A stretch of 64,000 nt of DNA, taken from Thozetella sp. PMI_491 (Eukaryota; Ascomycota; Sordariomycetes; Chaetosphaeriales; Chaetosphaeriaceae). The notes beneath the pieces are model-generated. The model did not search any database. It was not told the origin of the DNA and worked only from the letters and a program-made list of their open reading frames with translations. Positions 20,311 to 62,997 of this stretch are shown piece after piece. The first letter of the stretch is position 1. Every line of letters begins with the position of its first letter. Made by a program: the position numbers and the translations under genes. The stretch covers positions 1,186,594 to 1,250,593 of the forward strand of contig MU270021.1 of NCBI GenBank assembly GCA_021432635.1, read 5' to 3'.

Positions 20311-21998
20311 ATGGCCTTATCGCGAGAAGTCACATTATCGATAGCAGAGAACCTCTCCTTCCAGATACCTGAAGATGAGGTCGATGAATATACTCTGCTA
20401 CTCGAAAGGATGGAGAAAAATATAGCTGTGGTATCTGCCATGGAAGGTGAGGCCGAAGAACTACTGCTTAAAAAGGAGGCGCCGAAAGAGCAAGACTTAC
20501 ACCTCTACCTCAGACTACCAGCCAAGACCAGACTTAGCAAAGACCCCGAGGAAGAATTTACACCTCCCCACAGCAGAAGATAACCACCTGGGAGCATGGG
20601 CGTGGCGCTTCGAGCTCTCATCATCTGCCCCCTCCAGAACGCTTCTCCAGGGTAAGACGTTGTGCATCAAAGACAACATCTGCGTGGCCGACGTTCCATG
20701 TCTCCTTGGCACCGATACCTTCCAGGATTGGATCCCGCAAACCGATGCGACGATCGTCACTAGAATCCTGGATGCAGGCGGTGTTATCTCAGGAAAGGCT
20801 GTGTGCGAGAATCTCTCGCGAGGGGCCGTGAGCGCGACTGCAGCAACAGGCCCTGTCCACAATCCGTATGCACGTGGCTATTCTGTCGGCGGGAGCAGCT
20901 CTGGTACTGCTTCCCTGGTCGCAAGTGGCGCAACAGACATGGGTATCGGATGTGACCAGGGAGGCAGCATTCGCATCCCCGCCGCCCTAGCTGGTCTGTA
21001 TGGCTTCAAGGCGACGCTCGGGCTGGTACCATACACTGGAATCGCTAGCAATGACGCTAGCCTGGACTACGTTGGCCCGATTACGACGACTTGTCTCGAT
21101 ACTGCGGTGTTGCTGGAGGCCATTGCTGGCGCGGATGGTCTTGATGACCGACAAGGGGCTGGGATTCCGTTCCCGAGCGGTGTACCATCGTATTCCAAAC
21201 TGCTGCTCGACTCGGCTAACGAAGGTATCCGCGGGATGAGAATCGGTATATTAAAGGAAGGCCTACCATCGAGCACTTACTCAAATCTGGAAAGCAAGTT
21301 CCGAGATGCAGCTGCGGTCTTTGAGAGGCTCGGAGCAAGTGTGCACGAGATCAGCATCCCTCTACACGCGGATGCAAAGACTCTCTATACGGTCCTCAGT
21401 AAGATGGGGAACCACATGGGAATGCTTGGCAAAGCGACTGGGCGCCGCCAGGTTATGCTTACAGACCTATATGAAAAGAAAAATACCCCGTATAGCGCAG
21501 CCGTTATTGACAAGGCAACTAGTTACCCTGTCCCGTAAGCCTGAGCACTCGGGAAGCGCTAACCCTTACATCTAGATGAGCGTCACGAGTAAGGAGGGGC
21601 TTCTCAGTGGAGAGCACGCTTGGCAGCGCTATCCTTGCGTATATCCCAAAGCCGTCAATCTCAGTCGGAAGCTTCGGGATCTTTATGACGAGGCTCTCAC
21701 CTCCGTCGACGTCTTGGTGATGCCTACTACGCTGGATGTCGCCCGACCGCTGCCACCCAGCAACGCCACACCTGTGCAGCAAATCGACACCGTGGTCGGC
21801 ATGACAGACAATACCTGCCCGTTCAACGCGTCCGGACACCCATCCCTGGCCATGCCCATCGGTTTCGTCCCGGCTAAGGGGGATACGGAAGTGAAGGTCC
21901 CGGCTAGTATGCAGATTGTGGGCAAGTTCCACGATGAGCTGACTATCATGAAAATAGCCTACGCGTGGGAGCAGGAGATTAACTGGAAGGAATTTTGA
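20311..21998 (+). CDS. Amidase-signature family hydrolase
   Basis: Three exons (20311-20446, 20514-21534, 21581-21998) give 524 residues. The Ser-cisSer-Lys triad is visible as K98 (CIKDN), S173 (GGSSSG) and S197 (DQGGSIRIP), with the usual 24-residue spacing between the serines. The family hydrolyses amide bonds of small molecules such as acetamide, indole-acetamide or fatty amides. The long N-terminal helical part before residue 70 and the LGAWAW motif are common in fungal members. Intron 1 is well defined. For intron 2 the first AG after the branch point would create an immediate stop, so I used the next AG five bases on. That acceptor is less certain. A sugar-transporter gene ends tail to tail 205 bases away. 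Confidence 0.87.
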
Positions 21999-45190: not shown

Positions 45191-47252
45191 CTACAGCTTT
45201 GCTCCCTGCTTCCGTCTTCTCTCCTTCTCCCTGTCTCGCAAGAGCCGCCTCAAGATTTTGCCGCTCGGACTCTTGGGGATCTCGGGCAGAAACTCGACGC
45301 CGCCTTTGATCCACTTATACGAGGTCTTGTGGTCTTCGACGTGCTTGGTGATGATCCGTGCCACCTCGTCATCTGGCCGGGACGCGAACTCGGGCGACTT
45401 GACCACGAACGCCTTGGGAACTTCGCCGGACCGGTCGTCGGGTATCTGGATCACCGCACAGTCCGACACGGCTGGGTGTGCCAAAATATGAGCCTCCAGC
45501 TCGGCCGGCGCCACCTGGTGGCCCTTTACCTTGATCAGCTCCTTAATCCGGTCCACGATGACGAGGTGTTCATGGCCCGAGGGAGCTTTTGTGATGAGAA
45601 CCTCGTCGCCGGTCCGAATCCACCGCGTCCCATCTTCATCGTACACAAAGGTCTCAGCAGTGGCCTTCTCGTTGTGGAGGTAGCCGAGAGTGAGAGAGGG
45701 GGTTGAGACCAAGATCTCGCCGGGCTTGTTGTATTCGGTAATTTCGTTGCCCTCGGGGTCGAGGAGCTTAGCCCGGTAGCCCGGAAGCAGGGAACCCGAC
45801 GCACCGGACAGGACATCGTGTTCGCTTGTCGAGCTGATGACGACCGAAGTTTCGGTCATTCCTGCATGCCGTGTTAAATCTCCACGCGAAGGGATGAGAG
45901 ACACGACGACTTACCATAGGCCTGGACTATGGTCCATTTCGGGTATATCTCTTGCAGCTCTTTGGTTGTCTCCTGCCCCAGAGGTGCTGCACCAGAATAC
46001 ACTAGGCGTACGCTGTCCAGATTGTACTTGCTGCATATGTCATGCGACTGCAGCATCCGGATGATGATAGGTGGAACCTAGGCAACTTAGCAAGCTACCT
46101 TCGCAGCAAAGCCAGGAATCCGACTTACAACAATGAGATGCTCAATCCGGAACTTCTGGATCGCTGCCAGATAGGTCTCCAGCTCGAATTTGGGCAGGAC
46201 AACGATCTCATCGCCGCGCCAGGTAGCCGTGTGCGACACCACCACGAGCCCGTAAATGTGGCTCATGGGCATAAGCCCCAGCTCTACCTGTGTCACTACG
46301 CCTCGCTGTTTCCTCCCCACCGATTCGAAGGCAGTGTGTTGGAGCACATTCGCGATGACGTTGCGATGCGAAATCATAACCGCTTTCTAAAAACGGTTAG
46401 CGAAGGCCAGAGATAGGCTGACATATTCCATGAGGGGAAGCTTACAGGAAGTCCTGAGGTACCGCTTGAGTAGCACAAGAACGCAGGCTGGCGGGCTCCT
46501 TGACCCTTCCCCCACCGAAGGGGCTCGAGCTCCGGGAGTGATTGGCCTTCCACTACTAGATCCTCGATCGTGGCGAAGGAGGCCGGCTTAGCGTCACCCA
46601 CGGTGGGCAGGATGAAGACATGCTTCCTCGCAATCCCAGCGGCGTCCGCCGCACTAATTGCCGACTCAAGCAAGGGTACACAGGTGAACAGGGCCTTTGC
46701 GCCCGAGGATTTGAGCTGGTGTGTGAGCTCGGCGATAGAGTAGGCTGCATTGGCCGGGCTAACAATTCCGGATAAGCGGTGAGCCGCGTACGCCGCCGGG
46801 ATATAATCGATCTACATTGTGCTGACGTTAGACAATAACTTGGATTTTTTCTTCTCTCGGGATCGCACTGGGCGGGGCACGAACAGTGTTGACCGAGAAG
46901 ATGGCCACGACCTTGTCCCACGGTGTGCCATCGTTCGGCGTCCAACCCATGCGCTTGCTGAGCGACCTGGCCATATACTCGGATCGGTTGAAGAAGTCAT
47001 GGACGGAGAAGGTGCGCCCAGTGAGGCCACAAGTGAAAGGATTCCTGCTCTTAGAGGCTGGTCGGCGGCCATACTTTTCGTTCTGCATGAACTCCGCGAT
47101 AGGAATCGAGTCCGGCGGATCTGGCGGGCGGGTAAATGTCAGTGTCTAGCACGATGTGAAGCTCAAATCTAGCACGCGTGGGCGGGGAGGCCTTCTGGCA
47201 TCGACTGACCGATGGCGAGCTTGGGCACCCAGGATGGAGGATAGAAAACCAT
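45191..47252 (-). CDS. AMP-dependent acyl-CoA ligase (4-coumarate-CoA-ligase-like), peroxisomal AKL end
   Basis: Six exons on the minus strand (47252-47210, 47120-46885, 46811-46446, 46386-46129, 46077-45915, 45861-45191) give 578 residues. The AMP-binding motif SSGTSGLP joins KAVMISHRN across intron 3. YSGAAPLG, YGMTETS, RTGDE and the catalytic-lysine motif KSPSGKILRR are present. The enzyme would activate an aryl or fatty acid with ATP and CoA. The last three residues are AKL, a valid type-1 peroxisomal signal, so the product probably works in peroxisomes beside beta-oxidation. An upstream in-frame ATG at 47417 would add 55 residues with no acidic residue until near their end. I prefer 47252 because family members start at MVFYPPSWVP. 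Introns 1 and 2 have weaker GTCAGT and GTTCGT donors. Confidence 0.9.
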
Positions 47253-47810
47253 CTCGGCGACACAAAGCAGGTGTGTTTCTGGTTGCAAGGTGTTGTTAGT
47301 CGATTGGTGAAGAGATGCAGCCAAGGATAAGAGTTGCAGGTTGCAGACGCCGAAAAAAAGTCGTGAGAGCACAGATATCGTGACTCGCGTACCCATCCCT
47401 GAAGCTACCCCTGACATTTGTTTGCTACCCCGCGGCTTCGGAACTCCAAGTTCTCCACAGTCCCCAGATCAAAGGCAGTCCCAAAGCAGATAGCCGACTT
47501 CGGCTTCAATGGTTTGTGTCAAGAAAAGTGGAGCAAGCAGACTTCCCAGCGACCTGGCACGCTGGACACCGACCTGACAGGGGTAAACTAACTCAAGGGT
47601 GCAGGGGTGGGCGTAGGACCTCTCTAGGGGCACAGGAGATGACCATTGGCTTCGCGGCTTGCCTGCTTACCGATGCTCGCCGTCTAAGACAAGCATCGTG
47701 GCTAGGGCGATACCCCAGGCCGAAGGCAGATAGACAGAGACAGACAACGACAATTCCTCACCACGTTGCCCTACCTGCTAGAACTGTTGCGCCAAGAACA
47801 GTTGGACATC
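47253..47810. promoter_or_regulatory. Putative bidirectional promoter (acyl-CoA ligase / alcohol dehydrogenase)
   Basis: A 558-base gap between two divergent start codons. No gene seen. Shared control is suggested by layout and by the linked functions on each side. Confidence 0.45.
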
Positions 47811-49144
47811 ATGGATCTCGCCTTGCCCAAGACCATGTTTGCCTGGAGGAAGCACAGGGGAAACCCGGAGCCCGTACGTTGGCGCCTGCACGTCCGGCGG
47901 CCCTTGAGTTGACCGCATGACCAGGTATGGGAGGAGGTTCCGGTGCCAGAAACACCTGCCACGGGCGTTTTGTGTAAGATGCTGGCTTCCGGAGGTAATG
48001 AAAGTCCCTTGTAAAACCCTCCTAGTTAGACGGCTATTGATTTGTCCAAACAGTTTGCCACAGCGACCATTATCTAGTTGGCAGCGACGACCAGTCAAGC
48101 TGGTTCCAGCCAAAATTCACTTTAGTGAGCAGCCCTAATTTCTATGTCCGCGCAACCCAGCCTTTAACTATCCTCATAGGGCCATGAAGGCTGCGGTCGA
48201 ATCGTCCGCATCGGTCCTGACGTCAAAGAGCCTCGGTTCAAAGTAGTACGTCTCATGTCCACGTCAATAACTACCTTGGCGAGCTAACTCGAGCGGAAGG
48301 GCGACATTGTCGCCCTGCACGCGGTCCCGGGCTGCGCCATGCCCGACTGCGACGAATGCTCACGAGACCTTTCCCAACTCTGCGAGCGAGGTCATCATTC
48401 TGGGATAGGCCAGGATGGCTTTTACGCCCCGTACGCCGCCATCGACGCCCGTGGGGTAGTCCCCGTGCCCCAAGGCGTCACCCCGGGCGAGGCCGCCGTC
48501 GCCACCGACGCCGTGACGACCGCATACCATGCCATCCACCGCCGCGGTGAAGTCAAGGCGTCAGAGACAGTGTTTCTATTCGGCCTGGGCGGGCTCGGCT
48601 TCAACGGGCTGCAGATCGTGCGCAATATCGGCGCAAGGGTCCTCGTCTGCGACATCCGGCAGGAGCTGCTCGACGCGGCAGCCACCCTGGGGGTGCCTAA
48701 GAGTGACATCGTGCCAATCGGCAAGTCACCGGTGGACTTCGTCGCCGAGCTGGGTGTGCCTATCGACACTGTGCTGGACTTTGTTGGAACCCATCAGACC
48801 TTCGAGGATTCGCAGCACATAGGTGCGTTATGTGGAAACGCCTGCGAAAATGGCCCGGAGCGAGACGCTGACTGCTCACAGTGCGACGCGGGGGGAAGCT
48901 GCTGTGTGTTGGCTTTCTCGACATGGAGAATACTGTCCAGATGAAGATTGGCACGCGGAAACGGCTCACCTTTATCTTCACGTACGGTGGCCAGCCGAAG
49001 GATCTAGAGGAGGTGCTTCATCTCATTGCGAAGGGTGCAATTCAGCCTCAGGTGAAAGGTGGCAAATTAGAGGACTTCCCCGCCGTATTAAAGGATTTGG
49101 GAGACGGCAAGGTGGAGGGCCGGATTGCGTTGATGCACGAATAA
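47811..49144 (+). CDS. Zinc-dependent alcohol dehydrogenase (MDR family)
   Basis: Six exons (47811-47873, 47925-47994, 48054-48124, 48180-48245, 48300-48822, 48882-49144) give 351 residues. The catalytic zinc site is VCHSDHY plus GHEGCG, each assembled across introns. The structural zinc cysteines lie in the CAMPDCDECSRDLSQLC block, and the cofactor motif is GLGGLG. The enzyme would oxidise a primary or secondary alcohol with NAD(P). Exons 1-4 are only 63-71 bases. For intron 4 I used the GTACGT donor and an AAG acceptor because this gives the conserved FKVGDIVAL junction. It shares a promoter region with the acyl-CoA ligase and converges on the SDR 95 bases away. Confidence 0.9.
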
Positions 49145-49239
49145 GAGGCCTTTTCTAAGGTAGCAGTAGTCTATTGTTTATCCTCACGGGAAATCATGTT
49201 CTACATTAATTCGTCATGCTTGCAATAGTCTACTCTGCC

Positions 49240-50159
49240 CTAGCCATTGACACTCGCGCTCTTCGGCATGTTAGTGCCTACAGCGGCGGTAGTTCCTGCG
49301 TCGACTGGAATGATAGCTCCTGTGATCCACCTAGCGTGATCAGAGGCCAGGAATACTGCCGCACAGGCGGCATCCCAGCCGTTGCCTTCGGTGCCCAGCA
49401 AGCTCCTCGCCTTTCTCGCCGCCCTGGCATCCTCGGACATGCCCCCGGCGTACATCATCGGGGTGTAGAGCATCTACGAGATACACGTTAGTCTTGTCGA
49501 CACCACAAGATGCGTCACGCAGGACGGAATCGTTAACGTACCCCTGGGCACACGCAGTTGACCCGGATGCCGTCCTTTGCATGGTGCGCCGCCATTGCCC
49601 GTGTCATGTTCACCACTGCGCCTTTGCTGGTGGGATACAGCAGGTGCGGCGTACCGCCCTTCAGACCGGCCACGCTGCCCATGTTGATGATAGAGCCCTT
49701 CATCTCGCCGTCATTACGCGCCATGGCTGGCACCGCGTATTTGGTCATCTGTACCATACTCGACACGTTGATCTCGAGACCTTTGGCCCACTGCTCCATG
49801 TCCACTTCAACTGCAGTGCCCGAGGCACCGGCGACGCCGACATTGTTGACCAGGATGTCGAGACGGCCGAACTTGTCGAGCGCCAGCTTAACGGCGGCCT
49901 CACAGTCGGCGGCCTTAGTGATATCGCCCTGCGCGGCAATCGCTGTGCCACGTCCCGGGTGCGCATTGATCATCTCGGCTGTCTTGTTGGCCCACTCGAG
50001 GTTCAAGTCGACACAAATGACGTCGGCGCCGTCGTCAGCGAGGAGGATTGAGATGGCTCGTCCATTGCCGATGCCTTCGCCCACGCAGCCGGCGCCCGTG
50101 ACGATGGCAGCCCGGCCCTTGAGGGAGCGGCTCGGGGGTGTTATTGGTATGTCCGACAT
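49240..50159 (-). CDS. Short-chain dehydrogenase/reductase (classical SDR)
   Basis: Two exons on the minus strand (50159-49542 and 49473-49240) give 283 residues. The cofactor motif TGAGCVGEGIG lies near residue 21, NNVG follows the central strand, the catalytic serine is in NMGSVAG, and YPTSK provides Tyr and Lys. RVNCVCPG joins MLYTPMM across the intron, a normal SDR C-terminal transition. DLN after the second strand favours NAD over NADP. It could interconvert a ring alcohol and ketone, feeding the monooxygenase of the same block. Substrate unknown. Confidence 0.9.
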
Positions 50160-50855
50160 GATGGATGCACGTGCGGGAGGAGACGAGCTTCCTGAATGGC
50201 TTGCGAGTAGAAAGAAAGTAGTGACCAGGTCGCCTCCTATCTCATAATATTTTGTGGTTCTCCGCATCTCACCCAAGCTCCCACCAAGCTTCCCCTCATA
50301 TCCATCCGCACGCGGTTAGGGCCCGGTGGCGCTGGCTGCGTTACCGGACTCTTGACATTCGTGCGTCCTATTCCCGTGCCTCTCCCTACGTGGGGTCGGA
50401 TACCAGTCTCCGGGGTAAACTAGGGGTAGCCTCCAAGTTTGGACTCTTCAACAAATGCCGGTCTGGCAAGTTTGAAAATGCATAACCGCCACGCAAGTGT
50501 TAGTGTCGGCAGCATCGGCAATCCGAGTTGGGCAAAGCCATGCCGCCCCAGTCCAGTGGCAGCCGTAGAACCCTACATGGCGGGCCTGGCCGATCCCTAG
50601 ATCGATCACATGGCACCCAAGCCCACTACTCCCACAGATGCATGGAACCCAGGGCGCATCGTTGGCAGCACGCTAGGTTCCAGTTCATCCGGCAGGAGGA
50701 GCTCTACCAGTCTTGAGGAGTGGGGCCCCGGCACCAAGACATTGGTCCCTGGAGTGAGACACACAAGTGGCCGAACAGTGGGATGCTATCAAAGTCCCCT
50801 CACCACCAGCTAGCAGTTGAGGATACAGAGCCAGAAAACAAAAGGAGCGCGAAAC
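50160..50855. promoter_or_regulatory. Putative bidirectional promoter (SDR / esterase)
   Basis: A 696-base gap between divergent starts. No gene supported. Confidence 0.4.
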
Positions 50856-51978
50856 ATGTGCGACTTTTCGCGATATGGCGGACCAAGCGAGGAGTGGCTG
50901 GCGGTGCAGGCTGGCCTGCCAACCCCACCCAAGCTGTCGTTAGAGGAGAAGAAGCGGACCACGAATGAGGGCCGCGAGAAGCTGGCGGCCGAGGTGATGG
51001 AGCAACTTGGGAAGAAGGTTCGCATTCAAGACTACTCCATCCCCACGCGGGATGGGTCCTCCATCGAAGCCCGCACCTACCGGCCGGTGAGCATAGACGA
51101 GGCAGAGACGCTCCCCGTATACATACACTTCCACGGAGGCGGCTTCTTCTTCGGTACGCTGTCTTCCGAGGATGCCATAGCCGCTCGCATCGCCATCAAC
51201 GCCAAGGTTATTGTGCTGAACGTAAACTATCGCCACACGCCCGAGCACGTGTATCCCGCGCCGTACCACGACGCGCAGGATGCCTTCGACTGGCTGCACG
51301 CCAACATCGCGACGGTGAAAGGCAACCCGGAGCAAGTCGTCGTGGGAGGCATCTCGGCGGGTGCGCAGCTCACGTCATCGCTAACATTGCAGAAGGCCCT
51401 GGGCAAGGCGTGTGTCTCGGCTCCGCCCATCGCCGGCCAAGTGCTCATGATCCCGTGCGTGGCGCACATGGACTGCTACGGGCCACAGCTCGCCAAGATG
51501 AAGAGCCCGGACGTGTCGTCGTATAAGGAGAACCACGACGCGCCGATTCTATCGGTAGCCACGTGCCGGTTCTTCCTCGACCTTCTCAAGTGCGAGCCGT
51601 TGGACGATGCCGACCTCATGCTGAATCCAGGCAACGCCAGCCCGGACGACGTGCGCGGGCTGCCGCCTACCGTCTTCGGGATCGCGGGGCTAGATCCGCT
51701 CCGGGACGAAGGGCTACTCTACGCAAAGATGCTGACAGAAGCCGGGTGAGAAACGATCACCCACTCTGCTGTCCACTAGCTGGTATTCTAACAGGTGCAT
51801 CGCCGTGTTTAGGGTCGCGACAGACATCAACCTGTTCCAGGGTGTACCGCATGGCTTCAGGCGCTTCGGGGAGAAGCTATCGGCCTGTGAACGGTGGGAT
51901 GAAGTTATGGAGAACGGCATCCGCTGGGCTCTGAATAAGCCGCAGGCCACAGGCGAGTTTAATGTCAAGACAGAATAG
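50856..51978 (+). CDS. Alpha/beta hydrolase, hormone-sensitive-lipase (HSL/bacterial family IV) type esterase
   Basis: Two exons (50856-51745 and 51813-51978) give 351 residues. The family hallmark HGGGFF supplies the oxyanion hole. The nucleophile serine is in GGISAGAQ, the acid in GLDPLRDEG and the catalytic histidine in GVPHGF, which lies in exon 2. Such enzymes cut short- to medium-chain esters and some lactones. I used the TTTAG acceptor at 51811-51812 because it joins EAG to VATDINLFQGVPHGF without an insert; an earlier CAG acceptor would add six residues. The start at MCDFSRYG is family-like. In this block it could open the ester made by the Baeyer-Villiger enzyme. Confidence 0.9.
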
Positions 51979-52752
51979 GGGTTAATATATCAGAATACCT
52001 GTTCAACTCGCTCCGGTCATAAGTTCGAAACCCATGTTGACCATTGGCCATTCCTTCATTTTATTCTTTTAGTTATGCCCCTTCTCTCTTTCTCTTTTGC
52101 TTGCGGATTTTGCAGACTAGTGAGCTCCCAACTTTGCACATTTTTCTTTTGCTTAAAAAAAACCCCCAAATCACATTTGTTATTTATTCGGTAAAATGAT
52201 TACAACTAACATTCCGAATAGTAAATAATATTTATGTATGTATCTAAGAGATCTTTTGCAGCAGTATTGAAGGCAGAGCTGATTGGCCCGACGGGCTGCT
52301 GGAGGCTGTGCACGCTGAAGCAATTGCTGTAACTAGGTACTGTATTCCGTACTAGGTTTAGTCTCTAGCGATATAGTGATAAGGACTGGAACAGAATCAG
52401 CCTCACTGTCACAGCGGACGATACTTCTACTCCGAGCAAAGGCAATATGGCGCATGTGAAAATGGGATAGCTACAGTGTCGTTTGCATATACTAGCCTAC
52501 CAACGAAGTACAGACACGCGCAGACGTGGTGAGCCAGGGCTGCTGAGCAGTCGCTGCGCGTAACCCCTCAACTGGAGTGCAACCCCCACAATCAGGCACC
52601 ATCAGCACTTCACACACCCGCCGCTGCATCGGGTTGTTGTCTAAGATGTCGGTCAATAGGATCGGATTGACTCAAGTATACTGTCCAGCAGGTCCAGCGA
52701 CGGTTGAGTGTGTCCCCCCGTGAGTTGTCGATTGCTTCGAAGTGCTTACTAC
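51979..52752. other. Intergenic region
   Basis: Upstream of the NLR-like gene. A/T-rich near 52140-52240. No gene supported. Confidence 0.5.
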
Positions 52753-55700
52753 ATGACCAGCGTGTATTTCGTCCACGGACTTTTCGGGCACCCATACCGA
52801 ACCTGGGCCACTGCTGCACCCACGCCGGCCTTAGACGTTCCTGCAGCCCAGAAGCCCTCGAGACGATCAATATTCTCCCGGTCTTCGCTGATACGAACGA
52901 ACGTGACGCCGGAGTCGTCGGACAGACTTAGACCGGGATGGCTATCCTCGCGGTCTAGGTCATCTTCGCAGCACGAGAGCCTCGCGAGTGAGGATTCTGG
53001 CTTGTCGAAAGAATCGTCTATCGTAAGATGCACTCAGACCAAAGGAAACTTTTATACGTGCTCACTCTGGTCTCCCAACTCGTTAGCCTAGTACTAGTTC
53101 GGCACCAAATGGAGCAGACGACGACCTCGATCCTAGAGACGATGATAGCAATATTCACTGGCCCCGAGACCTGCTGCCTAAGTTGATGCCATCCGCAAGA
53201 ATATTTACCTGGGGCTACGATGTGGATATTGCAAAGCTATTCTCATCAACATCTACGGCGTCCGTCTTCCAGCATGCATCCACTCTGCTCTCCGATATCT
53301 CAGACAGCAGGATTGCCGCCGAGGAGAAGATGCGCCCCATCATCTTTGTCGCCCATAGTCTGGGCGGCATTGTTGTTAAAGATGCATTGTGTATCTCCAA
53401 CAGCGAGAGAACTCACCTGAATGAAGTAGGGAAAGCTACCGCTGGGGTATGCTTCCTCGGAACACCTCATAAAGGCTCGTCGTCTGCTTCAATCGGCAAG
53501 ACCGCATTCGGCATCAGCCGTATCTTCCTCCAACAGCCGAATATCGGAGTCCTGAGGTCACTGGAGCATAATTCAGAAGTACTGGAGCGCATAACTCGCA
53601 GCTTCAGCCTGCTTTTGCTAGACAGTACGATCAAGATTCATTCATTCCGAGAAGAGCTTCCGTACCATGGAGTCATGATCGTGGAGCCTGAGTCAAGCTT
53701 CATCGGGGACGGTCTGGAGACTACCGGCACCATCCATGCACACCACCGCAACATTACCAAGTTCTCAACCATCACTGACCCAGGGTTTCGAAGAGTCGCG
53801 TCAGTCCTTAAACGATGGGAGAAGGAGTGTCATGTATCAGGCGGTAAGTAGCGTCTGGTGCCTCCCGTGGCCATGTAGGTCGTCTTACTGAAGATCGGGC
53901 AACAGAAGAGCCTGACCACAACAAGGAAGAACATATTTTTCAAGGTTTGTGCCTTGTGACGTTTGGCTAGGTCATGCTGTGCTCATCATCAGTGTAGCCC
54001 TTTTACAAAGCCTGAACATGGTTCAATCTCGTCAACGACTTGAGGACGTTCAGGACCCATTTAAAGACACATATTCCTGGGTCTTTAAGTCAGATATTGG
54101 ATTCACTAATTGGCTCCGACAGGCCCATGGCCGGTTCTTCTGGATCCAAGGAAAGCCCGGGTCCGGCAAGTCTACCATGATGAAGTACATTCTGAACCAA
54201 GACGAAACGACACGTCTACTGCCTCCCCTCAGTCAAGGTCGCTGGGTTGTCAAAGGCTTTTTCTTCCACGACCGAGGAGCAGAGTCGCAGAAGTCGATCG
54301 AAGGCCTGCTTCGTGAACTTCTGTACCAGACACTTAGGAGCAACTCTAACCTCCTTCGCGTCATTGCTCGCATTTATATCCAAAAACTCATCCCCCGGCC
54401 GCTGGAAACTATTTCCGAGCATGGATGGTCCGCAAGGGATATCGCGGAAGCCTATGCCTTTCTAGGGAAGAAAGAAGTTGTCTGGGAGGCCAAGGATGTG
54501 CTCAGCGCCTTCTGGCTTATCAACACAGCCCGGATACCGCCGGTCCATCTATGCTTCTTCGTTGATGCTCTTGATGAGCATAGCGGCAACCACCGAGAAC
54601 TGCTCAATGTCCTCAACAGTCTGGCAGAACCAAAAACTCGAGGGGCACTATTTGTGAAGATGTGCGTCGCTAGCCGACCCGAGAACATCTTCCAAGACGC
54701 ATTCAGCAAGTGTCCTGGGTTCAAAATCCACGAACACACCAGAGATGACATCACAAAGTACGCGATCACGCGGCTCCGGGAAGAATCATACTTGGTAGAT
54801 GGTTACCTCGATCATTCATTTTTAGATGTCCTCATCCCCGAAATCTTGGAAAAGGCCGAGGGTGTTTTTATCTGGGTCCGCTTGGTCGTGGAGGAACTCC
54901 TCGAAGGACTCTGTGACGGCGACACCATCTCAGAGCTTCGTGATCTGCTCTCCGCGCTGCCCACTGAGCTTGGTGATCTCTACCACCGCGCATTGCTCCG
55001 CTATAGGGTTCGGCGGCGAACAAGAGTCATTACGCCGGGTCCTCGGCATGAGCTTGAAGCCCACATCATGCTGCAAATCGCTGCATGTGCTGTCGAACCC
55101 TTCCAACTTCACGAGCTTATCTCTGCTGCCTTATATCTAGCCGGCATATCGTCGTCTTCGGCAATGACCGAGGACGAAATGAAAAGACGGCTCCGGGCCA
55201 AGACCGGCGGCCTTTTAGAAGTCTCGGTAACATCGGAATCCAAAGTCGTCCAGTTTATACATCAGACGGCCAAGGAGTTCGTGCTTCAAGATCCACGGTC
55301 CGCTTGCCTAGCTCAGGCCCGTGGGCTGGAGGACATGGAAAACGGACACGTTCTCCTCCAGCGATACCTGATCCACCACTTCAGCAATGGGTCGTTCGTC
55401 AGAGTCAAGGAGTTCGCCACCTACGCAGCAAAGGCCGACCTGCTAACCGGGATGGCATATACAGAAGACCTCCTGAAACTCTGCGAAAATGATTCGAACT
55501 TTAAAATTTTGCTCTCGAACCTCGACCTTGGACCCTCCTTCTGGGCCCTCCTTGATCGGACCGGCGAGCCTGAGTTCTGGCTACTGATCCTGGCTGTAGC
55601 ATTCTCTCTTCATAACTTCCTCATAAGCCAGATTGAAGGCCACAGCCTAGGTGCTGAATTGTACCCTCAGCGGCTCGCCACGGCCATAGCTTGGGCCAGC

Positions 55701-56495
55701 TACTGTAGATGGCCGCGGTGGTCCCTCGCTGGCAAGACCGGAGTCGCCGATGTTCTCGATGCCCTTTTTAGACGACATTGGCCCGACATGAGGTATCGCG
55801 GAAATTTGCCCCTGCAGAGTGTCTTCTCGAAGTATCAGCTACCATACCATGATACCTCCACCACTAACAGGAGCGTGTTCGACAATTTCGACTCCAAAGA
55901 CTACGACTTGAAACTGATACAGACTTTGCTTAAGCTGGGCTCGGATCCAAATACCAGTGTGACGTGGGAAGAAAACACCTCACCGCCTTTGCACCTTGCG
56001 ATTAACAATGCAATTATGAAGGTGTGGTCGAATTTTCCGGCTTATACCATGGCGGAAGTCCTATTAAGGGCGGGCTCGGATCCCTCCGGGCTAGACAGCT
56101 TCGGCAACACCGCGCTCTACTACGCCATCGATAATAACGACACACGCATCATCCACCTTCTGGTTACCTATGGAGCAGACTTATGCCGGCTCAACGCGAC
56201 CGGGCTGAACTTCTGGCACCCCACGGAAGCAGCATTCGCCAAATCGGGCCGCAACTGTATGGCATTTCTTCAAAAGTGCTCGTCTTTGCGACCTCGGCTC
56301 ATAAATATGTATGGCTATGAAGAGAAAGCTGATGGGCCCATGGCATCTGATTCCTCCCACCCTGGCAGCAACCGAAACTCCAGCGGGCGCAGCTCACGGC
56401 AATCTTTGCTGTCTGTTCTATCCCTCTCCCACCGGCGATCTGGCTCTCAGGCATCGATACCTGAATCCCCTATTGACGGTGCAAGGAAAAGTTGA
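52753..56495 (+). CDS. NLR-like STAND protein: alpha/beta hydrolase - NACHT NTPase - ankyrin repeats
   Basis: Four exons (52753-53022, 53087-53843, 53906-53944, 53998-56495) give 1,187 residues. Residues 1-330 form a serine-hydrolase-like domain: YFVHGLFG at the start, the nucleophile elbow AHSLGG with S181, and FLGTPHKG. A NACHT-type NTPase follows, with Walker A GKPGSGKST at about 407-415 and Walker B CFFVDALDEH at about 541-550. A helical region comes next, then a C-terminal zone with ankyrin-like repeats near residues 1000-1080 (LLKLGSDPNT, LLRAGSDPSG and LLVTYGADL). This is the layout of fungal NOD-like receptors, in which an N-terminal effector is switched on by ligand binding at the repeats. 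They act in non-self recognition and regulated cell death. A role here is inferred. The exon-2 acceptor (GTTAG at 53086) is the least certain junction. Confidence 0.87.
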
Positions 56496-56712
56496 GAAGC
56501 ATTGGAAGGCGGGCTGAGGTAAAAGGCCGACCGTGTCTAGCTACTAGGAAGCAGATGCAAGGAACTTTTATTAAGTTGAATGTGTTATAGAGCTATCTAG
56601 AACTGTCTAGGGCCGAACTACTTCGGTCAAAAGGTAGAGGACACAATTGGTCAAGAGTGGTACATTACACGCTAGGGATTCCAAATTTATCGTGCTACAG
56701 CGAAATGGGTAA

Positions 56713-58408
56713 TCATCCTAGTACAAAATCCGCGTAATTCCTCGCCTTTACATCGTCGCATCGCTTCCTGTACCCCGGCGCGGGGCCGTTATACCTCGTA
56801 AGCGACCGCGCCTGCTTGTGCTTGAGGTTCTTGTTGACACCCGTCATCCACGAGTCGACCTCGTTCGCCAGCAGCCCTTTGCCGCAGTCGTCGACGTGCT
56901 GGTACCACATGTCCATGCTCTCCTGCGTCGCCTCGATTCGCAGCATGTTATTGTCGCGAGCCCACTGGATGTAGTCGGCGACCCAGTCGACGGCGTACTC
57001 AATGCTGCGCGGGATGTTGCCGAACATCTGGTGCGGGCCCATGACCATGAACATGTTGGGAAAGTCCTTGACCGTCAGGCCAAGGAACGTCTGGATGCCT
57101 TGGTTCCACGTGTCGCGGAGCTTGGTGCCGTTCACGCCCTGGAAGTCGACGGCGTTGAAGGAGCCCGTCACAGCGTCGAAGCCGGTGGCGTAGATGAGAA
57201 TGTCGAACTCAAAATCGGTGTCGCGCGTCTTGATGCCCTTCTCCGTCACCCGCTCGATCGGGTTCTCGTTGATGTCGACGAGATGTACGTGCGGCTGGTT
57301 GAAGGCCTCGTAGTAACCGCTCTCTAGTGGTACCCGTCGTGTGCCAAAGCCGTGGTTCTTGGGGATCAGCTTCTCCGCTAGCACCGGGTCGTTTATGCGT
57401 TGCCGGATCTTGTTGGCGTTGAACTCGCTGTACAGCCGGTTGGCCTCGCGATCCGTCGCAATATCTGTTGAGACGCCGAGCACCTTGGCGAAGCCGGGGA
57501 GCTTGTAAAGCTCTTCCCAGTGCGCGAAGAGCTCTTCTTGAGGGAGGTCCGTCGTCTTGCGCGTGTCGCTCATGTGGACGAAGCACGAGTAGGACTCGAG
57601 GCACTTTCGGAAGATTTCAGGGTATTGCTTCCGGATCTCGGCCATCTCCTCGGGGCTGATCTTAGTGTTTCGCAGCGGCGCTGTCCAGTTTGGTGTCCGT
57701 TGGAACACTGTCAAGTCACCGGCGATCTTGTAGATCTCCTGGATCGTCTGGATGGCCGTCGCACCCGTGCCGATGATACCGACACGCTTGCCCTTAAGCG
57801 CCGAGTGATCGCCGGGCCACCGCGCCGTGTGCCAAGCCTGGCCTTTATAGTCGTTAACGCCCGCGATATCGGGCAGGGTGGGCTGGTTGAGGATGCCCAT
57901 GGCGGTGACGATGTACCGGGTGGTGTACTGGCGTCCCGACTCGTCTGTGAGAAGCCACGAGTTTGTGGCAGTCTGGAAGTGTGCTGACTTGATGCGCGTG
58001 TTGAACTGCATGTCCTTCTTGAGGTCGAACTTCTTGGTGAGGAACTGGATGTAGCGGAGCGTCTCGGCCTGCGGCGCGAAGTGCTCCGTCCAGCTCCATT
58101 CGTCTAGGACTTCTTGGGAGAAGGAAAAGATGTATGAATAGCTCTCTGAGTCAAAACGGGCACCGGGATAGCGATTCCTAGCAAGAGCAGTAATATTAGC
58201 AGTAGCTCGCAAAATTTCTGCGCGGGGCGACCATGCCAGGCCATTCTCACCAGAACCAGGTGCCACCCTCCTCCTCGCCGGCCTCGAGAGCCTTGACCCG
58301 CAGACCGAGGTCGCGGATCTTGAGTAGGGAGTAGATGCCGCTCAGCCCGCCGCCGATTATGAGGACATCATAGTCCAAGTCTTTGTTGGCCTCCACGAAC
58401 GCCGCCAT
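56713..58408 (-). CDS. Flavin-dependent Baeyer-Villiger monooxygenase
   Basis: Two exons on the minus strand (58408-58251 and 58177-56713) give 540 residues. The FAD motif is GGGLSG. The intron join gives GGTWFWNRYPGARFD, the first Baeyer-Villiger fingerprint. The second fingerprint reads YKGQAWHTARWP, with Tyr in place of the usual Phe. The NADPH motif is GTGATA. The C-terminal half has ATGFDAVTGSFNAVD and GPHQMFGNIPRSIE, typical of cyclohexanone/phenylacetone-type enzymes. The enzyme would insert oxygen next to a ketone to give an ester or lactone, using NADPH and O2. The substrate is not readable. The gene is oriented head-to-tail with the lactonase gene upstream of it. Confidence 0.93.
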
Positions 58409-58979
58409 GATTCCTGTCTCCTGTGTGTGGTGAAGGCTGCAAGCTGAGGTGGGGCGGAGACGTTTGGGTTGGCCTGCAGAGTGAAACTAGGGTGTGTATG
58501 CTGCTGATCAAGTGGGATGGCTGACAAGAGACTATATCCCCTCCAGTAGCCGCACCCCTCCCTGCCGACTTGAGGCCATTCCCGCGCCGAGGGCCTAGAG
58601 GGGTTGTCTCGCGATGGCGGGGACCCCGCAGCGGGAACGCGACCGTCGGCTACCCCAGGAGGCTTTCTCCACGCCATGGCCGGCAATCCTAAAAGGGTCA
58701 ATGCCGGAGGTTTGACTCGTGTTCTGGGCACGGCAGCCCCGGCGAATGTCATGTAATAGTGGGCTGAGGAGTCCTGGGCTACCGAGCTGGGCCTCTCTCA
58801 GCGTTAGGCTAGAGGCAAAGACAGCGCCGAACCGACTCCACACCACCTACTTCGGCTGTCGTCGGTGCGTGGACAACGCGCCGCGTGCAGCCACAAAGCG
58901 ATAGCATTGGAATTTTTTTTTTTTCTCTACCTTTCGCCTCCGAGTGGATCAGATGGCGAGGTGCTAAGTTACCGTTGTC
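58409..58979. other. Intergenic region
   Basis: Upstream region of the Baeyer-Villiger gene. No gene supported. Confidence 0.5.
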
Positions 58980-60213
58980 TCAGGCTAGGCCCTGAGACTT
59001 CCAGTATGTGTCCAGATCGCGGAAGAACGCCCACTTCAACTTGTCGCCCCAGCCCTTCTCCTTCCATGCGTTCAGGCTCTCCGGGAAGTGTGGTACACCA
59101 TCCCTCACAGTTGAATCATGTGCTATGATTACAAATACATTCTCCAGACAATCCAGCTCTTGCAGCTTGCCTACCGTGTGAGTGGCGAGCGGGATGTCCA
59201 GGCCAAAGGTGATATCGAAGAGCGTGTCCGTAGGCTTCCGGTCGCGCGACTTCTGGAGCTCTTCCCAGGCGTGGCCGGGGCACAGGGACGCGCTCGCATC
59301 GTGCGGCTTGCACGGGTGCGGCGTGATGGTGCTCGGTACTGGAAGGTGCTCCGAGGGTCTGAAGATGCCAGCGTAGTGGCATACGTCGCCGCCAAGTAGG
59401 ACGAAGGTATCTGGGTTCATGGTTGTCCGCGCAAGACCGCACAGGTGGCCCACCGCATGTCCCGGGCTATCCAGGAGGTAGAATGAACCGTCTCCAAAAT
59501 AATCATGAGCAGGAAACCGCCCAGCCAGCAGACCCTCGCTGGCATCAAAGGTAATCTCCCGGAGGTTCCGGCCGCTGTATCTCCGTAAGTGACTAGATTC
59601 GGTGGCCCTTGGCATTGTCCGGCATAGCTGCTCTTACGTGTAATCACTCTCCTGAATGGGAGAATCCGGATTCGCCGGCGCTCCGGGCAGCATCGCTGCC
59701 TTGAATCCAGGGCCCACGACCAAGTCGGTCGACGGCGGGAAGGTAGACGGGTCCCCAATGTGATCCCAATGCCAGTGGCTTCATCCCACGCGCAGATACA
59801 AGTTAGCCATCGAGACTTTACGTTTCCAGCAGTTGCTACTACAGGGGAGGCCCTTCTTACCTCCAGATCACAGCCTCAATCTCACTAGTGGAAATGCCAC
59901 CCTCCTCGAGAATCTGGGCGACATCCCGGGGCGCCTGGATGTCGTATCCCGTTGTAGGAATGTACTCGGCAATCTTGGGTGAGTAGTTCAGGTAGTCCTT
60001 ACGGATGCCCAGATCAAACACCAGCTTGCGCCCCGATGGGTGTTCGAGCAGGAACGAGTGCGACGGGGAATCCTTGAATTGGTCCAGGCCAGGGACCATC
60101 GGGGTCATGAACCTTTTGATGATGGCGGGCCCAAAGTTGACGGGGTTGATGAGCTTCACCGTGATGGTCTCCCGCCCAGCGGGGAGCTGGAGTGTGCTGG
60201 CTTGGCCTGCCAT
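58980..60213 (-). CDS. Metallo-beta-lactamase-fold lactonase (AHL-lactonase-like)
   Basis: Three exons on the minus strand (60213-59861, 59778-59638, 59574-58980) give 362 residues. The zinc motif HxHxDH appears as SHWHWDH, built across intron 1. Further metal ligands fit DSPGHAVGH and LLGGDVCHY, with AHDSTV near the end. The overall pattern resembles N-acyl-homoserine-lactone lactonases and the fungal lactam/lactone hydrolases of the same fold. It would open a lactone or lactam ring in the cytosol. Its neighbour makes lactones or esters from ketones, so ring opening of that product is a natural guess. It shares its upstream region with the MFS carrier gene. Confidence 0.9.
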
Positions 60214-61225
60214 GTTTGATTTACCAGATATGATATGACACCTGTGATGCTGTTATTGAAACGAACTACAATCTCACGACAAGAGGCCAGGGTCGGTGTC
60301 GTACTGCTGCGGACCCGTCAATCTTTGTCTCCACTTCCACCACTAGTTACGTAGGAACCTATGCTGACGTCCTTTGCAAAGACTTCCTTTCTTATCGAGT
60401 TGGCCTATCCGAGCGTAGAAGTTCGGAGTCGTCTCGGTGCCCGAGCCACAGAAACTGCCTCGCCCCGTCTTGCCTCCTTTTTCACCTCGTGGGAGGGTTG
60501 TGTGTGGAGGTGTGGAGCAGCGAGGACCAGGAATTTCCCCAACGTGTTCAGTCCCCCGTATCAGCGCCCTTGCAGGCACGAAAGCGGAGATTACCCCCAT
60601 CGCCTCGAGACTAGCGTGCGGGGGAAACACAGGTTTGCTGCTTCGTAATGCGGCTCGACAGCCTGGAGCTGGGTGCTGGACCCTGCTACCCGGTTACTGA
60701 AATGCGCCGGCTATGGCGCCGGTAGTGTCGGTATTCCAGGCTGGGTTTAACGCAGACTTGGCGCCTCCACCGCACCAGAGAGACCGAGACGCCCGTTCTC
60801 TTGGATGAAGGAGCTGTGGGCAGCCACGCTGTCGCCAGCTCGGGACCTGGTAGGCTGGAGATTATCATGCATCTGGATGACTCGGGGACCGTCGTCTGCC
60901 TGACACTTCTGTATTGTGCTACGCAGCCTCACAGTTTATGCCACGCCCGGCCTGCATCCCAACCCGCCTCCGTGTGAAAAGATTTCCACCCTGCTGTGCC
61001 CCGGACCCCACGATCCTCCCCACGCGGATCTATTGCCATCTGGGGGTGTGTCTGGGGTTGTTTTGCTGTCCATTCCGAGGAGGTTTATAAAGCTCGACCC
61101 GGCAAGTTGGTTCACACCCTAGGCCTCCTGCACTCGTCATCTTCTTTTCTCGCTTGGCATCTTCCATCTACAGTGCCTGCCCATCTGCCTCTGCCTCATT
61201 GCCACCTGCTTTCTTTTCATTCACC
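60214..61225. promoter_or_regulatory. Putative bidirectional promoter (lactonase / MFS carrier)
   Basis: A 1,012-base gap between divergent start codons. A TTTATAAAG box at about 61084-61092 lies some 135 bases before the MFS start. No gene supported. Confidence 0.45.
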
Positions 61226-62997
61226 ATGTCGGAATCCGGGAAGGAGGAGCAGCCACAGATGCTCGAGAAGACGCCGACCGAGCACGCGGACCCCGGCGCC
61301 CTCAAGCCGACCAAGACCGTCGATACCGTCCACAATGACGAGGGCCTGCGCGTCCTTGCCGAATACAACGGCGAGCAGACATGGACGGATGCCGAGGAGA
61401 AGACCCTGCGTCGCAAAGTGGACTGGAGGTTGATGCCGGTGCTCTGCGTGACCTACGGTCTTCAGTACTATGACAAAGCCATGTTGTCACAGGCCGTACG
61501 CTCCCCCCCTTTAAGCAAACTTTTTCTCTATTGTTTCCAAGGCTGACAATGACACAAGGCTATCTTCGGGCTTCGGACGGATCTCGGTTTGCTCGTTGGC
61601 GATCGCTACTCATGGACGGCTTCGATCTTCTACCTCGGTTTCATCATAGGCTCCTACCCGGCCATGCTCCTCGCCCAGAGGTATCCTGTCGAACGCGTCG
61701 CCTCCGCCATCGTCACCCTCTGGGGCCTCACTCTGCTTCTCACCACTGTCTGTACCAACTACCAGGGCATCTACGCTCAACGCTTCTTCCTCGGCTTCCT
61801 CGAGAGCGGCGTCAGCCCCATGTTCATGCTCATCGTGGTATGTTGCTCCCTTCACTTATAAGAGATTTCGTTGACCTGACGCGTGGGATTTAGGGATCAT
61901 GGTACAAGAAGCCTGAGCAGGCCATGCGGATGGGCATCTGGTACTGCTGCACCGGCTACGTCTCTATCGTCTCCCCGCTCATCAACTACGGTTTCGGCCT
62001 GATCGGCGGCGGCGTGTCCTCATGGAGGTATATGTACTACTTCGCCGGCTCCATCACCATCCTCTGGGGACTAGTGCTTTACTTTGTCCTCCCGTCGGAC
62101 CCCATCCGCGCCAAGGGATTCAACGAGCGAGAGCGCTACATCTTGGTAGCCCGTCTGCAGAGCAACAACTCGGGCGTCCGCAACACGCACTTCAAGTCAA
62201 GCCAGGTCAAGGAGTTGGTACTGGACATCAAGTTCTGGCTCGTCTTCTCGGTTGCCTTCCTCGGCATGATTGCCAACGGCCCCATCTCGGCGTTCGTTCC
62301 TATCATTATCTCTGGCTTCGGCTTCAGCACTTTGAACTCGCTGCTGCTCCTGATCCCCGCCGGTTTCTACGGCGGCAGCATCATGCTGATTCTCTCGTTC
62401 CTGGCCTACAGGCTGCCCAACGCCCGTGCCTACCTTATCTTTGGCGCGCAGATGGGCACCACGCTGGCTGCCCTGCTGCTCTGGCGGCTGCCTCTCGATG
62501 CCCGCGGCGCTCTTCTGTTCGCCACGGCCATCATGCCTTCCCTCGGAGGCGGCTATGCCGTGCTCATGGGTCTGCAGATCGCCAACACGGCAGGATACAC
62601 AAAGCGCTCCATCGCCTCTTCGGGCCTCTACATCGGCTACTGTCTTGGTAGGCACTCTCAAGTTCTTGAAATCGAAGCACTATGCTAACCGCCCGGATAG
62701 GAAACTTTGTCGGCCCACTTGCGTTCAAATCGCAGGATGCCCCTCGCTACGCACCTGGATTCATCGTCGTGCTCATCACTTCGATCATCGCGGGCCTGCT
62801 CATTCTTGCCTACCGATTTGTGTGCGTGTGGCAGAACCGGAGCCGCGACAAGGCCGGCATCATGGAGGGCTATGACCATGCGTACGAGGATGACTCCACC
62901 GACATGACGGTAATTCTACCCCTTAATCTCCACTGAAGAATTTTTTTCCAGCTGACAGATATCTCCTCAGAATCCGCAATTCCGGTATATCCTCTAG
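61226..62997 (+). CDS. Major facilitator, allantoate-permease (Dal5) type
   Basis: Five exons (61226-61495, 61559-61837, 61894-62647, 62701-62909, 62971-62997) give 512 residues. After an 80-residue charged tail, the signature LRRKVDWRLMPVLCVTYGLQYYDKA opens helix 1. SWTASIFYLGFIIGSYP, GSWYKKPEQAMRMGIWYC and the closing NPQFRYIL are landmarks of the anion:cation symporter family, which moves allantoate, carboxylates, vitamins and related acids. The 27-base last exon restores the family's usual end. About twelve helices fit. It could import the substrate, or move an acid product, of the neighbouring lactonase/monooxygenase block. Substrate unknown. Confidence 0.92.

What the first reader, a model, noticed from the sequence alone, without database searches (positions are those of the whole stretch)
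45191..62997. Candidate catabolic gene cluster around a Baeyer-Villiger monooxygenase and a lactonase
Seven genes in 18 kb encode steps that fit one route: alcohol dehydrogenase and SDR (alcohol to ketone), Baeyer-Villiger monooxygenase (ketone to ester/lactone), lactonase and esterase (ring opening or ester cleavage), acyl-CoA ligase with a peroxisomal AKL end (activation for beta-oxidation), and an anion-type MFS carrier. Three divergent gene pairs share promoters. The enzyme classes are seen in sequence; the pathway and the substrate (cyclic ketone, terpenoid, or plant lactone/lactam) are inference. A related idea is a lactam-detoxification cluster, since lactamases of this fold occur in such fungal clusters.
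Basis: partly seen in the sequence, partly recalled or inferred. Interest (0 to 1): 0.7.

Follow-up and report, generated by a model that had tools for sequence, protein, structure and literature searches.

The report
Fungal ring-ketone degradation gene cluster
This stretch of a mould's chromosome carries a cluster of enzymes that probably breaks down an unknown ring-shaped alcohol or ketone; part of the set has a partial duplicate elsewhere in the same genome, which suggests that these genes work together.

Summary
The seven named genes are real, at the stated place, in three divergent pairs. In the same genome, C5 carries MFS, SDR2, ADH and MBL within 8 kb, each 66-68% identical to its counterpart here, so these four look like one co-duplicated module. 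BVMO, SDR1, esterase and acyl-CoA ligase lack such a copy, but BVMO-SDR and BVMO-ligase neighbours occur elsewhere in the genome above expectation; BVMO-MBL neighbours do not, so the title pair rests on adjacency alone. The two ADH promoters share a paired GCTACCC element; single copies lie in the other five promoter regions of the C7 cluster but not in the other two on C5. Best reading: an inducible route from secondary alcohol to ketone, to lactone or ester, to hydroxy acid, to peroxisomal acyl-CoA. Reactions and substrate are inferred. The lactam-detoxification idea is not supported. New variant of a known kind.

The parts
45191..47252 (-). Acyl-CoA ligase, 4CL-like, 578 aa, C-terminal GAKL (PTS1 type)
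   Evidence: six-exon model; Pfam AMP-binding 1.5e-68; nearest solved chains 4-coumarate-CoA ligases; two paralogues end GAKL and KSKL
47404..47430 (+). Paired GCTACCC element (start to start 20 bp) in the ligase/ADH promoter; the C5 ADH promoter has the pair at 21 bp
47811..49144 (+). Zinc alcohol dehydrogenase, 351 aa; nearest solved relatives are carbonyl reductases and secondary ADHs
   Evidence: six-exon model; Pfam; PDB search; C5 copy 66%
49240..50159 (-). SDR1, short-chain dehydrogenase, 283 aa
   Evidence: best long paralogue match in the genome 36%
50856..51978 (+). Esterase, Abhydrolase_3 family (HGGG, GISAG), 351 aa; candidate ester/lactone hydrolase
52753..56494 (+). NACHT-like (NPHP3_N) + ankyrin STAND protein with a lipase-like N-terminus, 1186 aa; probably unrelated to the pathway
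   Evidence: model; Pfam NPHP3_N and ankyrin; the lipase-like part is read by eye
56713..58408 (-). BVMO1, 540 aa, motif YKGQAWHTARWP
   Evidence: full-length match to OTEMO 9.1e-143 and phenylacetone monooxygenase 4.8e-141; 48-54% to four bacterial BVMOs
58980..60213 (-). MBL-fold hydrolase, 362 aa, HWHWDHIG; candidate lactonase
   Evidence: C5 copy 68%; metal-ligand positions aligned with two paralogues
61226..62997 (+). MFS carrier of the anion-symporter type, 512 aa
   Evidence: C5 copy 67%

Best explanation
An inducible catabolic cluster, about 25.7 kb long (C7:1231784-1257454, window 45191 to about 6.9 kb past its end), for an alicyclic, possibly terpenoid, secondary alcohol or ketone. 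ADH and/or SDR oxidise the alcohol to a ketone; a BVMO inserts oxygen to give a lactone or ester; the GDXG-type esterase and/or the MBL hydrolase opens it to a hydroxy acid; a dehydrogenase may oxidise the freed hydroxyl; the AKL-tagged ligase makes the CoA thioester in the peroxisome for beta-oxidation; the MFS carrier moves the acid or lactone; the Zn2Cys6 protein regulates. The locus is a composite: a module ADH/SDR2/MBL/MFS that exists in a second, diverged copy on C5, and a set BVMO/SDR/esterase/ligase whose families tend to neighbour each other elsewhere. Shown: genes, folds, the C5 copy, the shared ADH promoter element, PTS1 ends of the ligase and two paralogues. Inferred: reactions, order, substrate, regulation.
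For: C5:728.7-736.5 kb holds MFS, SDR2, ADH and MBL, each 66.4-67.6% identical to its counterpart here, in another order. The near-equal divergence fits one block copied together. Over most of their length, MBL, MFS and SDR2 have no other relative above 60% among the listed matches; ADH has one, on C6. Outside the home region, within 12 kb: BVMO-SDR 9 of 53 loci against 1.95 expected; ADH-MBL 3 of 39 against 0.23 (one is the C5 copy, two are distant relatives); ligase-BVMO 5 of 47 against 0.82, three of them not NRPS-type. C9 carries BVMO, SDR, BVMO, zinc ADH, aldehyde dehydrogenase and an alpha/beta hydrolase in about 11 kb. C1 carries ligase, cyclase-family hydrolase, esterase, SDR and BVMO in 10 kb. 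Paired GCTACCC occurs 7 times in 72.3 Mb, 2 of them in the two ADH promoters; a shared 7-mer direct repeat at the same spacing arose in 1 of 20000 random segment draws. GCTACCC is in 5 of the 5 other promoter regions of the C7 cluster (expected 1.31, tail 1.0e-3). No ketosynthase (68 listed matches) or terpene synthase of PF19086 (12 listed matches) lies on C7.
Against: No expression, mutant or fungal synteny data. In the 17 kb read around the C5 copy I saw no BVMO, ligase or esterase, so they are not needed for what that module does. BVMO-MBL neighbours are not enriched (0 of 53 within 12 kb, 1 of 53 within 20 kb), nor are MBL-MFS (1 of 18, the C5 copy itself), ADH-BVMO (2 of 39 against 0.68), BVMO-MFS (2 of 53 against 1.3) or ligase-ADH (0 of 47). 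As blind discovery the motif is weak: 10 of 150 random real sets and 7 of 150 shuffled sets did as well; with the two other C5 promoters it is 5 of 7, tail 0.016, and I had seen the motif before that test. The paired pattern is no commoner in the genome than its reversed control (7 against 10). No aldehyde dehydrogenase is among the cluster models. A NACHT-type gene interrupts the cluster.
Confidence: 0.52

Rival explanations
1. Two independent catabolic sets that happen to be neighbours: a lactone-type module (ADH, SDR2, MBL, MFS) and a separate ketone/ester set (BVMO1, SDR1, esterase, ligase), with different substrates and regulation.
For: Only the first set is copied on C5; BVMO-MBL and ligase-MBL neighbours are absent within 12 kb elsewhere (0 of 53 and 0 of 47).
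Against: The genes of the two sets alternate (ligase shares a promoter stretch with ADH; BVMO1 lies next to MBL), and GCTACCC is in promoters of both.
Confidence: 0.22
2. Camphor-like order: the ligase acts first and BVMO1 is an OTEMO-type enzyme that oxidises a ketone held as CoA thioester.
For: Best solved relative of BVMO1 is OTEMO, an enzyme named for a CoA-thioester substrate (PMC4097962, passages); bacterial relatives lie among CoA-pathway genes.
Against: Phenylacetone monooxygenase scores nearly the same (its free-ketone substrate is recalled). The ligase has a conserved peroxisomal end and BVMO1 has none.
Confidence: 0.1
3. Lactam detoxification cluster of the Fusarium FDB type.
For: MBL with HxHxDHxG and an MFS gene together, as in FDB1 (PMC4726666, passages).
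Against: No amidase, dienelactone hydrolase, N-acetyltransferase or salicylate hydroxylase among the models from 45.2 kb to SDR2.
Confidence: 0.03
4. Tailoring part of a secondary-metabolite pathway rather than catabolism.
For: Fungal BVMOs also occur in biosynthetic clusters (e.g. MoxY of aflatoxin, PMC6315744, listing and start of abstract only).
Against: No listed ketosynthase or PF19086 terpene synthase match on C7 and no NRPS-type ligase match on C7 in the capped list; PTS1 ligase and anion-type carrier fit uptake and breakdown.
Confidence: 0.08

Closest known systems
Carveol/dihydrocarvone route of Rhodococcus erythropolis DCL14 (PMC4097962, passages)
   Same: Dehydrogenase, BVMO, lactone hydrolase, then oxidation and CoA activation into beta-oxidation: the same order of enzyme classes
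   Different: Bacterial; sequences not compared here; the window adds an MBL hydrolase, a second BVMO and a peroxisomal ligase
chn/cpn operons for cyclohexanol and cyclopentanol (recalled; one search gave a listing only)
   Same: SDR, BVMO, alpha/beta hydrolase and zinc ADH side by side; the C9 locus of this genome also has an aldehyde dehydrogenase
   Different: No aldehyde dehydrogenase among the cluster models; CoA ligase and MBL added; Zn2Cys6 regulator
BVMO, SDR and aryl-CoA ligase syntenic with the 3-hydroxyanthranilate cluster of Aspergillus terreus (PMC7842363, passages)
   Same: A fungal catabolic neighbourhood with BVMO, SDR and CoA ligase; the passage names all three as upregulated by salicylate
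   Different: No MBL, zinc ADH or esterase named in the passages; attached to an aromatic pathway
BVMOs of Grosmannia clavigera implicated in limonene use (PMC8120277, passages; the primary paper is not held)
   Same: Fungal BVMOs in terpenoid breakdown, listed there as peroxisomal
   Different: BVMO1 has no peroxisomal end; cluster content not compared
Fusarium FDB1/FDB2 clusters (PMC4726666, passages)
   Same: MBL with HxHxDHxG plus MFS; there too two clusters with paralogous genes in one genome, the MBLs 65% identical
   Different: Other gene content; benzoxazolinone hydrolysis depends on MBL1 there and is untested here

Membership tests
Type I Baeyer-Villiger monooxygenase (BVMO1) | Motif FxGxxxHxxxW(P/D) (motif recalled) | tested here: met
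   YKGQAWHTARWP, with Y for F; BVMO2 has FKGHITHSARWD
Type I Baeyer-Villiger monooxygenase (BVMO1) | Full-length similarity to proven BVMOs | tested here: met
   OTEMO 9.1e-143 over residues 13-539; phenylacetone monooxygenase 4.8e-141 over 12-539
Type I Baeyer-Villiger monooxygenase (BVMO1) | Ketone-to-ester activity | not testable with these tools
   none
AHL-lactonase-like MBL | HxHxDH and downstream H, D, H metal ligands | tested here: met
   HWHWDHIG, SPGHAVGH, GGDVCH, IAHD, aligned with two paralogues; equation with lactonase ligands is recalled
AHL-lactonase-like MBL | Score above a curated lactonase cut-off | tested here: not met
   AttM model 45.8 bits against cut-off 390; PDB best 8.9e-8 over residues 39-220 of 362
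FDB-type lactam detoxification cluster | Amidases and dienelactone hydrolase beside the MBL | tested here: not met
   none among the models from 45.2 kb to SDR2; an amidase-like frame at 20.4-21.5 kb was seen by eye only
chn/cpn-type alicyclic ketone set | SDR, BVMO, alpha/beta hydrolase, zinc ADH clustered | tested here: met
chn/cpn-type alicyclic ketone set | Aldehyde dehydrogenase in the cluster | tested here: not met
   none among the models from 45.2 kb to SDR2; an aldehyde-dehydrogenase-like frame at 15.7-17.0 kb, seen by eye, is 28 kb away
Peroxisomal acyl-CoA ligase | C-terminal PTS1, conserved | tested here: met
   GAKL here and on C42, KSKL on C15; a more distant ligase on C92 ends ASL in an automatic model
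Co-regulated cluster | Shared promoter element | tested here: inconclusive
   ADH pair strong; other promoter regions 5 of 5 on C7, 0 of 2 on C5; blind discovery weak
Co-regulated cluster | Co-expression | not testable with these tools
   no transcript data

The most novel reading that the evidence does not exclude
A fungal two-round Baeyer-Villiger pathway for a bicyclic terpenoid, analogous to bacterial camphor breakdown: BVMO2 or BVMO1 opens one ring, MBL or esterase hydrolyses, the ligase activates, and the other BVMO opens the second ring. The cluster would have been built by merging a portable lactone module, kept in a second copy on C5, with a BVMO/esterase/ligase set.
Probability: 0.12. 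Interest if true: 0.62.

Novelty: new variant of a known kind. Interest (0 to 1): 0.42.

Why it matters
Baeyer-Villiger catabolism in fungi is, to my knowledge, poorly mapped, and few fungal BVMOs have a known natural substrate. A diverged partial copy in the same genome says which genes travel together and gives an ordered test: assay ADH, SDR2 and MBL from both copies on lactones and hydroxy acids, and BVMO1, esterase and ligase on ketones and esters. If a shared substrate is found, this would be a genetically defined fungal route for cyclic ketone or terpenoid breakdown and a source of biocatalysts.

Tried and rejected
Lactam detoxification: rejected for lack of amidase, dienelactone hydrolase and acetyltransferase among the models. 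Biosynthetic cluster: lowered, no listed ketosynthase or PF19086 terpene synthase match on C7. BVMO-MBL as a recurring pair: not supported. Blind motif discovery: the best word (CTACCCC, overlapping GCTACCC) was not significant against real or shuffled sets; another word, CGACACTA, ranked high at length 8 (4 of 9 promoter regions) and was not followed. Longest shared promoter words between the C7 and C5 copies: no longer than shuffles for the four pairs tested. The MBL-fold gene beside the bacterial BVMO relative in L060 gave no BLAST match to the window MBL at 1e-3. A frame near the C5 cluster that I took by eye for an SMP-30 lactonase had no Pfam match. Plasmid search with the MBL: 12 records, none covering 80% of it. 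The ligase list includes NRPS-type frames: two of the five ligase-BVMO loci (C1:1667563, C28:279049; open frames 2140 and 3510 aa) are of that kind, leaving three (C1:1687669, C20, C92). One search tested 21 family pairs at two distances against uniform placement, which overstates significance if such genes share regions. Three automatic MBL models (L015, L018, L019) failed and were ignored; the automatic C5 ADH model is uncertain near its N-terminus. Structure prediction was not used: I judged that spliced proteins would not pass its stated rule. Paper search gave no hits.
Full report
What is there. The window is G000:C7:1186594-1250593 of a 72.3 Mb genome in 157 contigs. Spliced models give eight intact genes from 45191 to 62997: acyl-CoA ligase (-), zinc ADH (+), SDR1 (-), esterase (+), a NACHT-type/ankyrin protein (+), BVMO1 (-), MBL-fold hydrolase (-) and MFS carrier (+). 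Pfam agrees for each, the MBL only just above its cut-off; the lipase-like N-terminus of the NACHT-type protein is my reading by eye.

The cluster runs past the window. The next 20 kb hold a Zn2Cys6 regulator, a second BVMO (608 aa) and, divergent from it, a second SDR (SDR2), ending 6.9 kb past the window. Further right are a TPR-like frame and an aldo/keto-reductase-like frame (both by eye), a PEP-mutase-family gene, a third BVMO and a cutinase-like frame (by eye); I leave these out for lack of evidence.

A diverged partial copy. In the same genome, C5:728.7-736.5 kb holds MFS, SDR, ADH and MBL. BLASTP identities to the C7 genes are MFS 67.2%, SDR2 67.5%, ADH 66.4% (C5 model uncertain near its N-terminus) and MBL 67.6%. 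Over most of their length MBL, MFS and SDR2 have no other relative above 60% among the listed matches: next come 46-48% for MBL, 57% for MFS and 42% for SDR2; short exons around the MBL metal motif reach 61-71% elsewhere. ADH has one other, on C6 (61%). Order and orientation differ and promoters share no longer words than shuffles, so the copying is old. In the 17 kb read around the C5 copy I saw no BVMO, ligase or esterase, nor did the searches with those proteins list a match there. This shows a four-gene unit; it does not show that BVMO1 belongs to it.

The other half. BVMO1, SDR1 and the esterase have no near paralogue: long matches reach at best 36-39%, 36% and 41%. The ligase has two, on C15 and C42 (53-73% by exon), neither with a listed match of the other six families within 20 kb. 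I counted neighbours of the family hits outside the home region (n = 18 MBL, 53 BVMO, 47 ligase, 44 esterase, 39 ADH, 113 SDR, 75 MFS loci; the searches list best candidates only). Within 12 kb: BVMO-SDR 9 of 53 (expected 1.95), ligase-BVMO 5 of 47 (0.82; three if NRPS-type frames are dropped), ADH-MBL 3 of 39 (0.23, one of them the C5 copy), ADH-SDR 6 of 39 (1.44), ligase-esterase 3 of 47 (0.68), BVMO-esterase 3 of 53 (0.77; 5 of 53 against 1.27 within 20 kb). Not above expectation: BVMO-MBL 0 of 53 (0.32), ligase-MBL 0 of 47, ligase-ADH 0 of 47, BVMO-MFS 2 of 53 (1.3), MBL-MFS 1 of 18 (0.44, the C5 copy), and weakly ADH-BVMO 2 of 39 (0.68). The null is uniform placement, so uneven gene density inflates significance; 21 pairs were tested. 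I read three of these places: C9 has BVMO, SDR, BVMO, zinc ADH, aldehyde dehydrogenase and alpha/beta hydrolase (ADH and hydrolase by Pfam, the BVMOs, the SDR and aldehyde dehydrogenase by eye); C1 has ligase, cyclase-family hydrolase, esterase, SDR and BVMO (cyclase by Pfam, the rest by hits); C92 has BVMO, esterase and ligase by the same searches, and an iron-ADH-like, a Zn2Cys6-like and a sugar-porter-like frame by eye.

Promoters. GCTACCC occurs in all six promoter regions of the C7 cluster and twice in the C5 ADH promoter, but not in the other two C5 promoters. As a blind discovery this is weak (10 of 150 random real sets and 7 of 150 shuffled sets reach the same score). The stronger observation is the pair: two direct copies 20 bp apart upstream of the C7 ADH and 21 bp apart upstream of the C5 ADH. 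The pair occurs 7 times in the genome, no more than its reversed control (10), but 2 of the 7 are these two promoters. A shared 7-mer direct repeat at the same spacing was found in 1 of 20000 random draws of segment pairs (19 at any spacing; overlapping draws were skipped) and in 1 of 4 paralogous promoter pairs. Taking the ADH pair as definition, the other promoter regions hold GCTACCC in 5 of 5 on C7 (expected 1.31, tail 1.0e-3) and 0 of 2 on C5 (together 5 of 7, expected 1.86, tail 0.016); I had seen the motif before this test, so the tails are optimistic.

Enzymes. BVMO1 matches OTEMO and phenylacetone monooxygenase about equally. Its nearest relatives found are bacterial: 54% in two alphaproteobacterial MAGs, 51% on a Rhodococcus ruber plasmid, 48% on a Roseovarius plasmid (a third contig has 45%). 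In the two plasmids and two MAG contigs read, CoA-pathway genes lie nearby (CoA ligases, thiolases, enoyl-CoA hydratases or acyl-CoA dehydrogenases), and in R. ruber also acyclic-terpene-utilisation and cyclase-family genes (annotated; 47, 48 by eye). No fungal collection was available, so horizontal transfer cannot be judged. ADH is nearest to carbonyl reductases and secondary ADHs. The esterase's best solved relative is vibralactone cyclase. MBL has the HxHxDHxG motif and the further H, D, H positions, but lies far below lactonase cut-offs; 'lactonase' stays a guess. The carrier best matches the D-galactonate transporter subfamily, below cut-off (178 of 395 bits). The ligase ends GAKL, its C42 paralogue GAKL and its C15 paralogue KSKL, so peroxisomal targeting looks conserved.

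Reading. The enzyme classes fit the bacterial carveol/dihydrocarvone route (PMC4097962, passages) and the chn/cpn operons (recalled). For fungi, a BVMO, SDR and aryl-CoA ligase next to a catabolic cluster is in print for A. terreus (PMC7842363, passages), so that association is not new. What I did not find in the listings of my searches (open-licence papers only) is the composite with MBL and zinc ADH or its partial copy. The substrate remains unknown.

Noticed in passing
52753-56494: NACHT-like (NPHP3_N) + ankyrin STAND protein of the fungal NLR kind, lipase-like at its start by eye, inside the cluster between esterase and BVMO1.
   Followed up: partly
L010 5466-7065 (C7:1266059-1267658): A third BVMO about 9 kb right of the cluster; its C27 relative (45%) lies near an SDR, a regulator-like frame and the next-best MFS paralogue (56%).
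   Followed up: partly
L069, L025, L026, L070 (C9:1068001-1088000): A compact set of two BVMOs, SDR, zinc ADH, aldehyde dehydrogenase and alpha/beta hydrolase, closer to the recalled chn set than the window itself.
   Followed up: partly
L071 (C1:1687001-1697000): Ligase, cyclase-family hydrolase, esterase, SDR and BVMO in 10 kb; R. ruber also has a cyclase-family gene next to its BVMO1 relative (24% identity over 153 aa).
   Followed up: partly
L060 6784-9635: In two alphaproteobacterial MAG contigs the 54% BVMO1 relative is divergent from an MBL-fold gene (the L060 one unrelated by BLAST to the window's), followed by a hydratase-like gene, SDR and acyl-CoA dehydrogenase (names by eye).
   Followed up: no
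20426-21535 and 15363-17031: Amidase-like and aldehyde-dehydrogenase-like frames in the left half of the window, 24-28 kb from the cluster (by eye).
   Followed up: no
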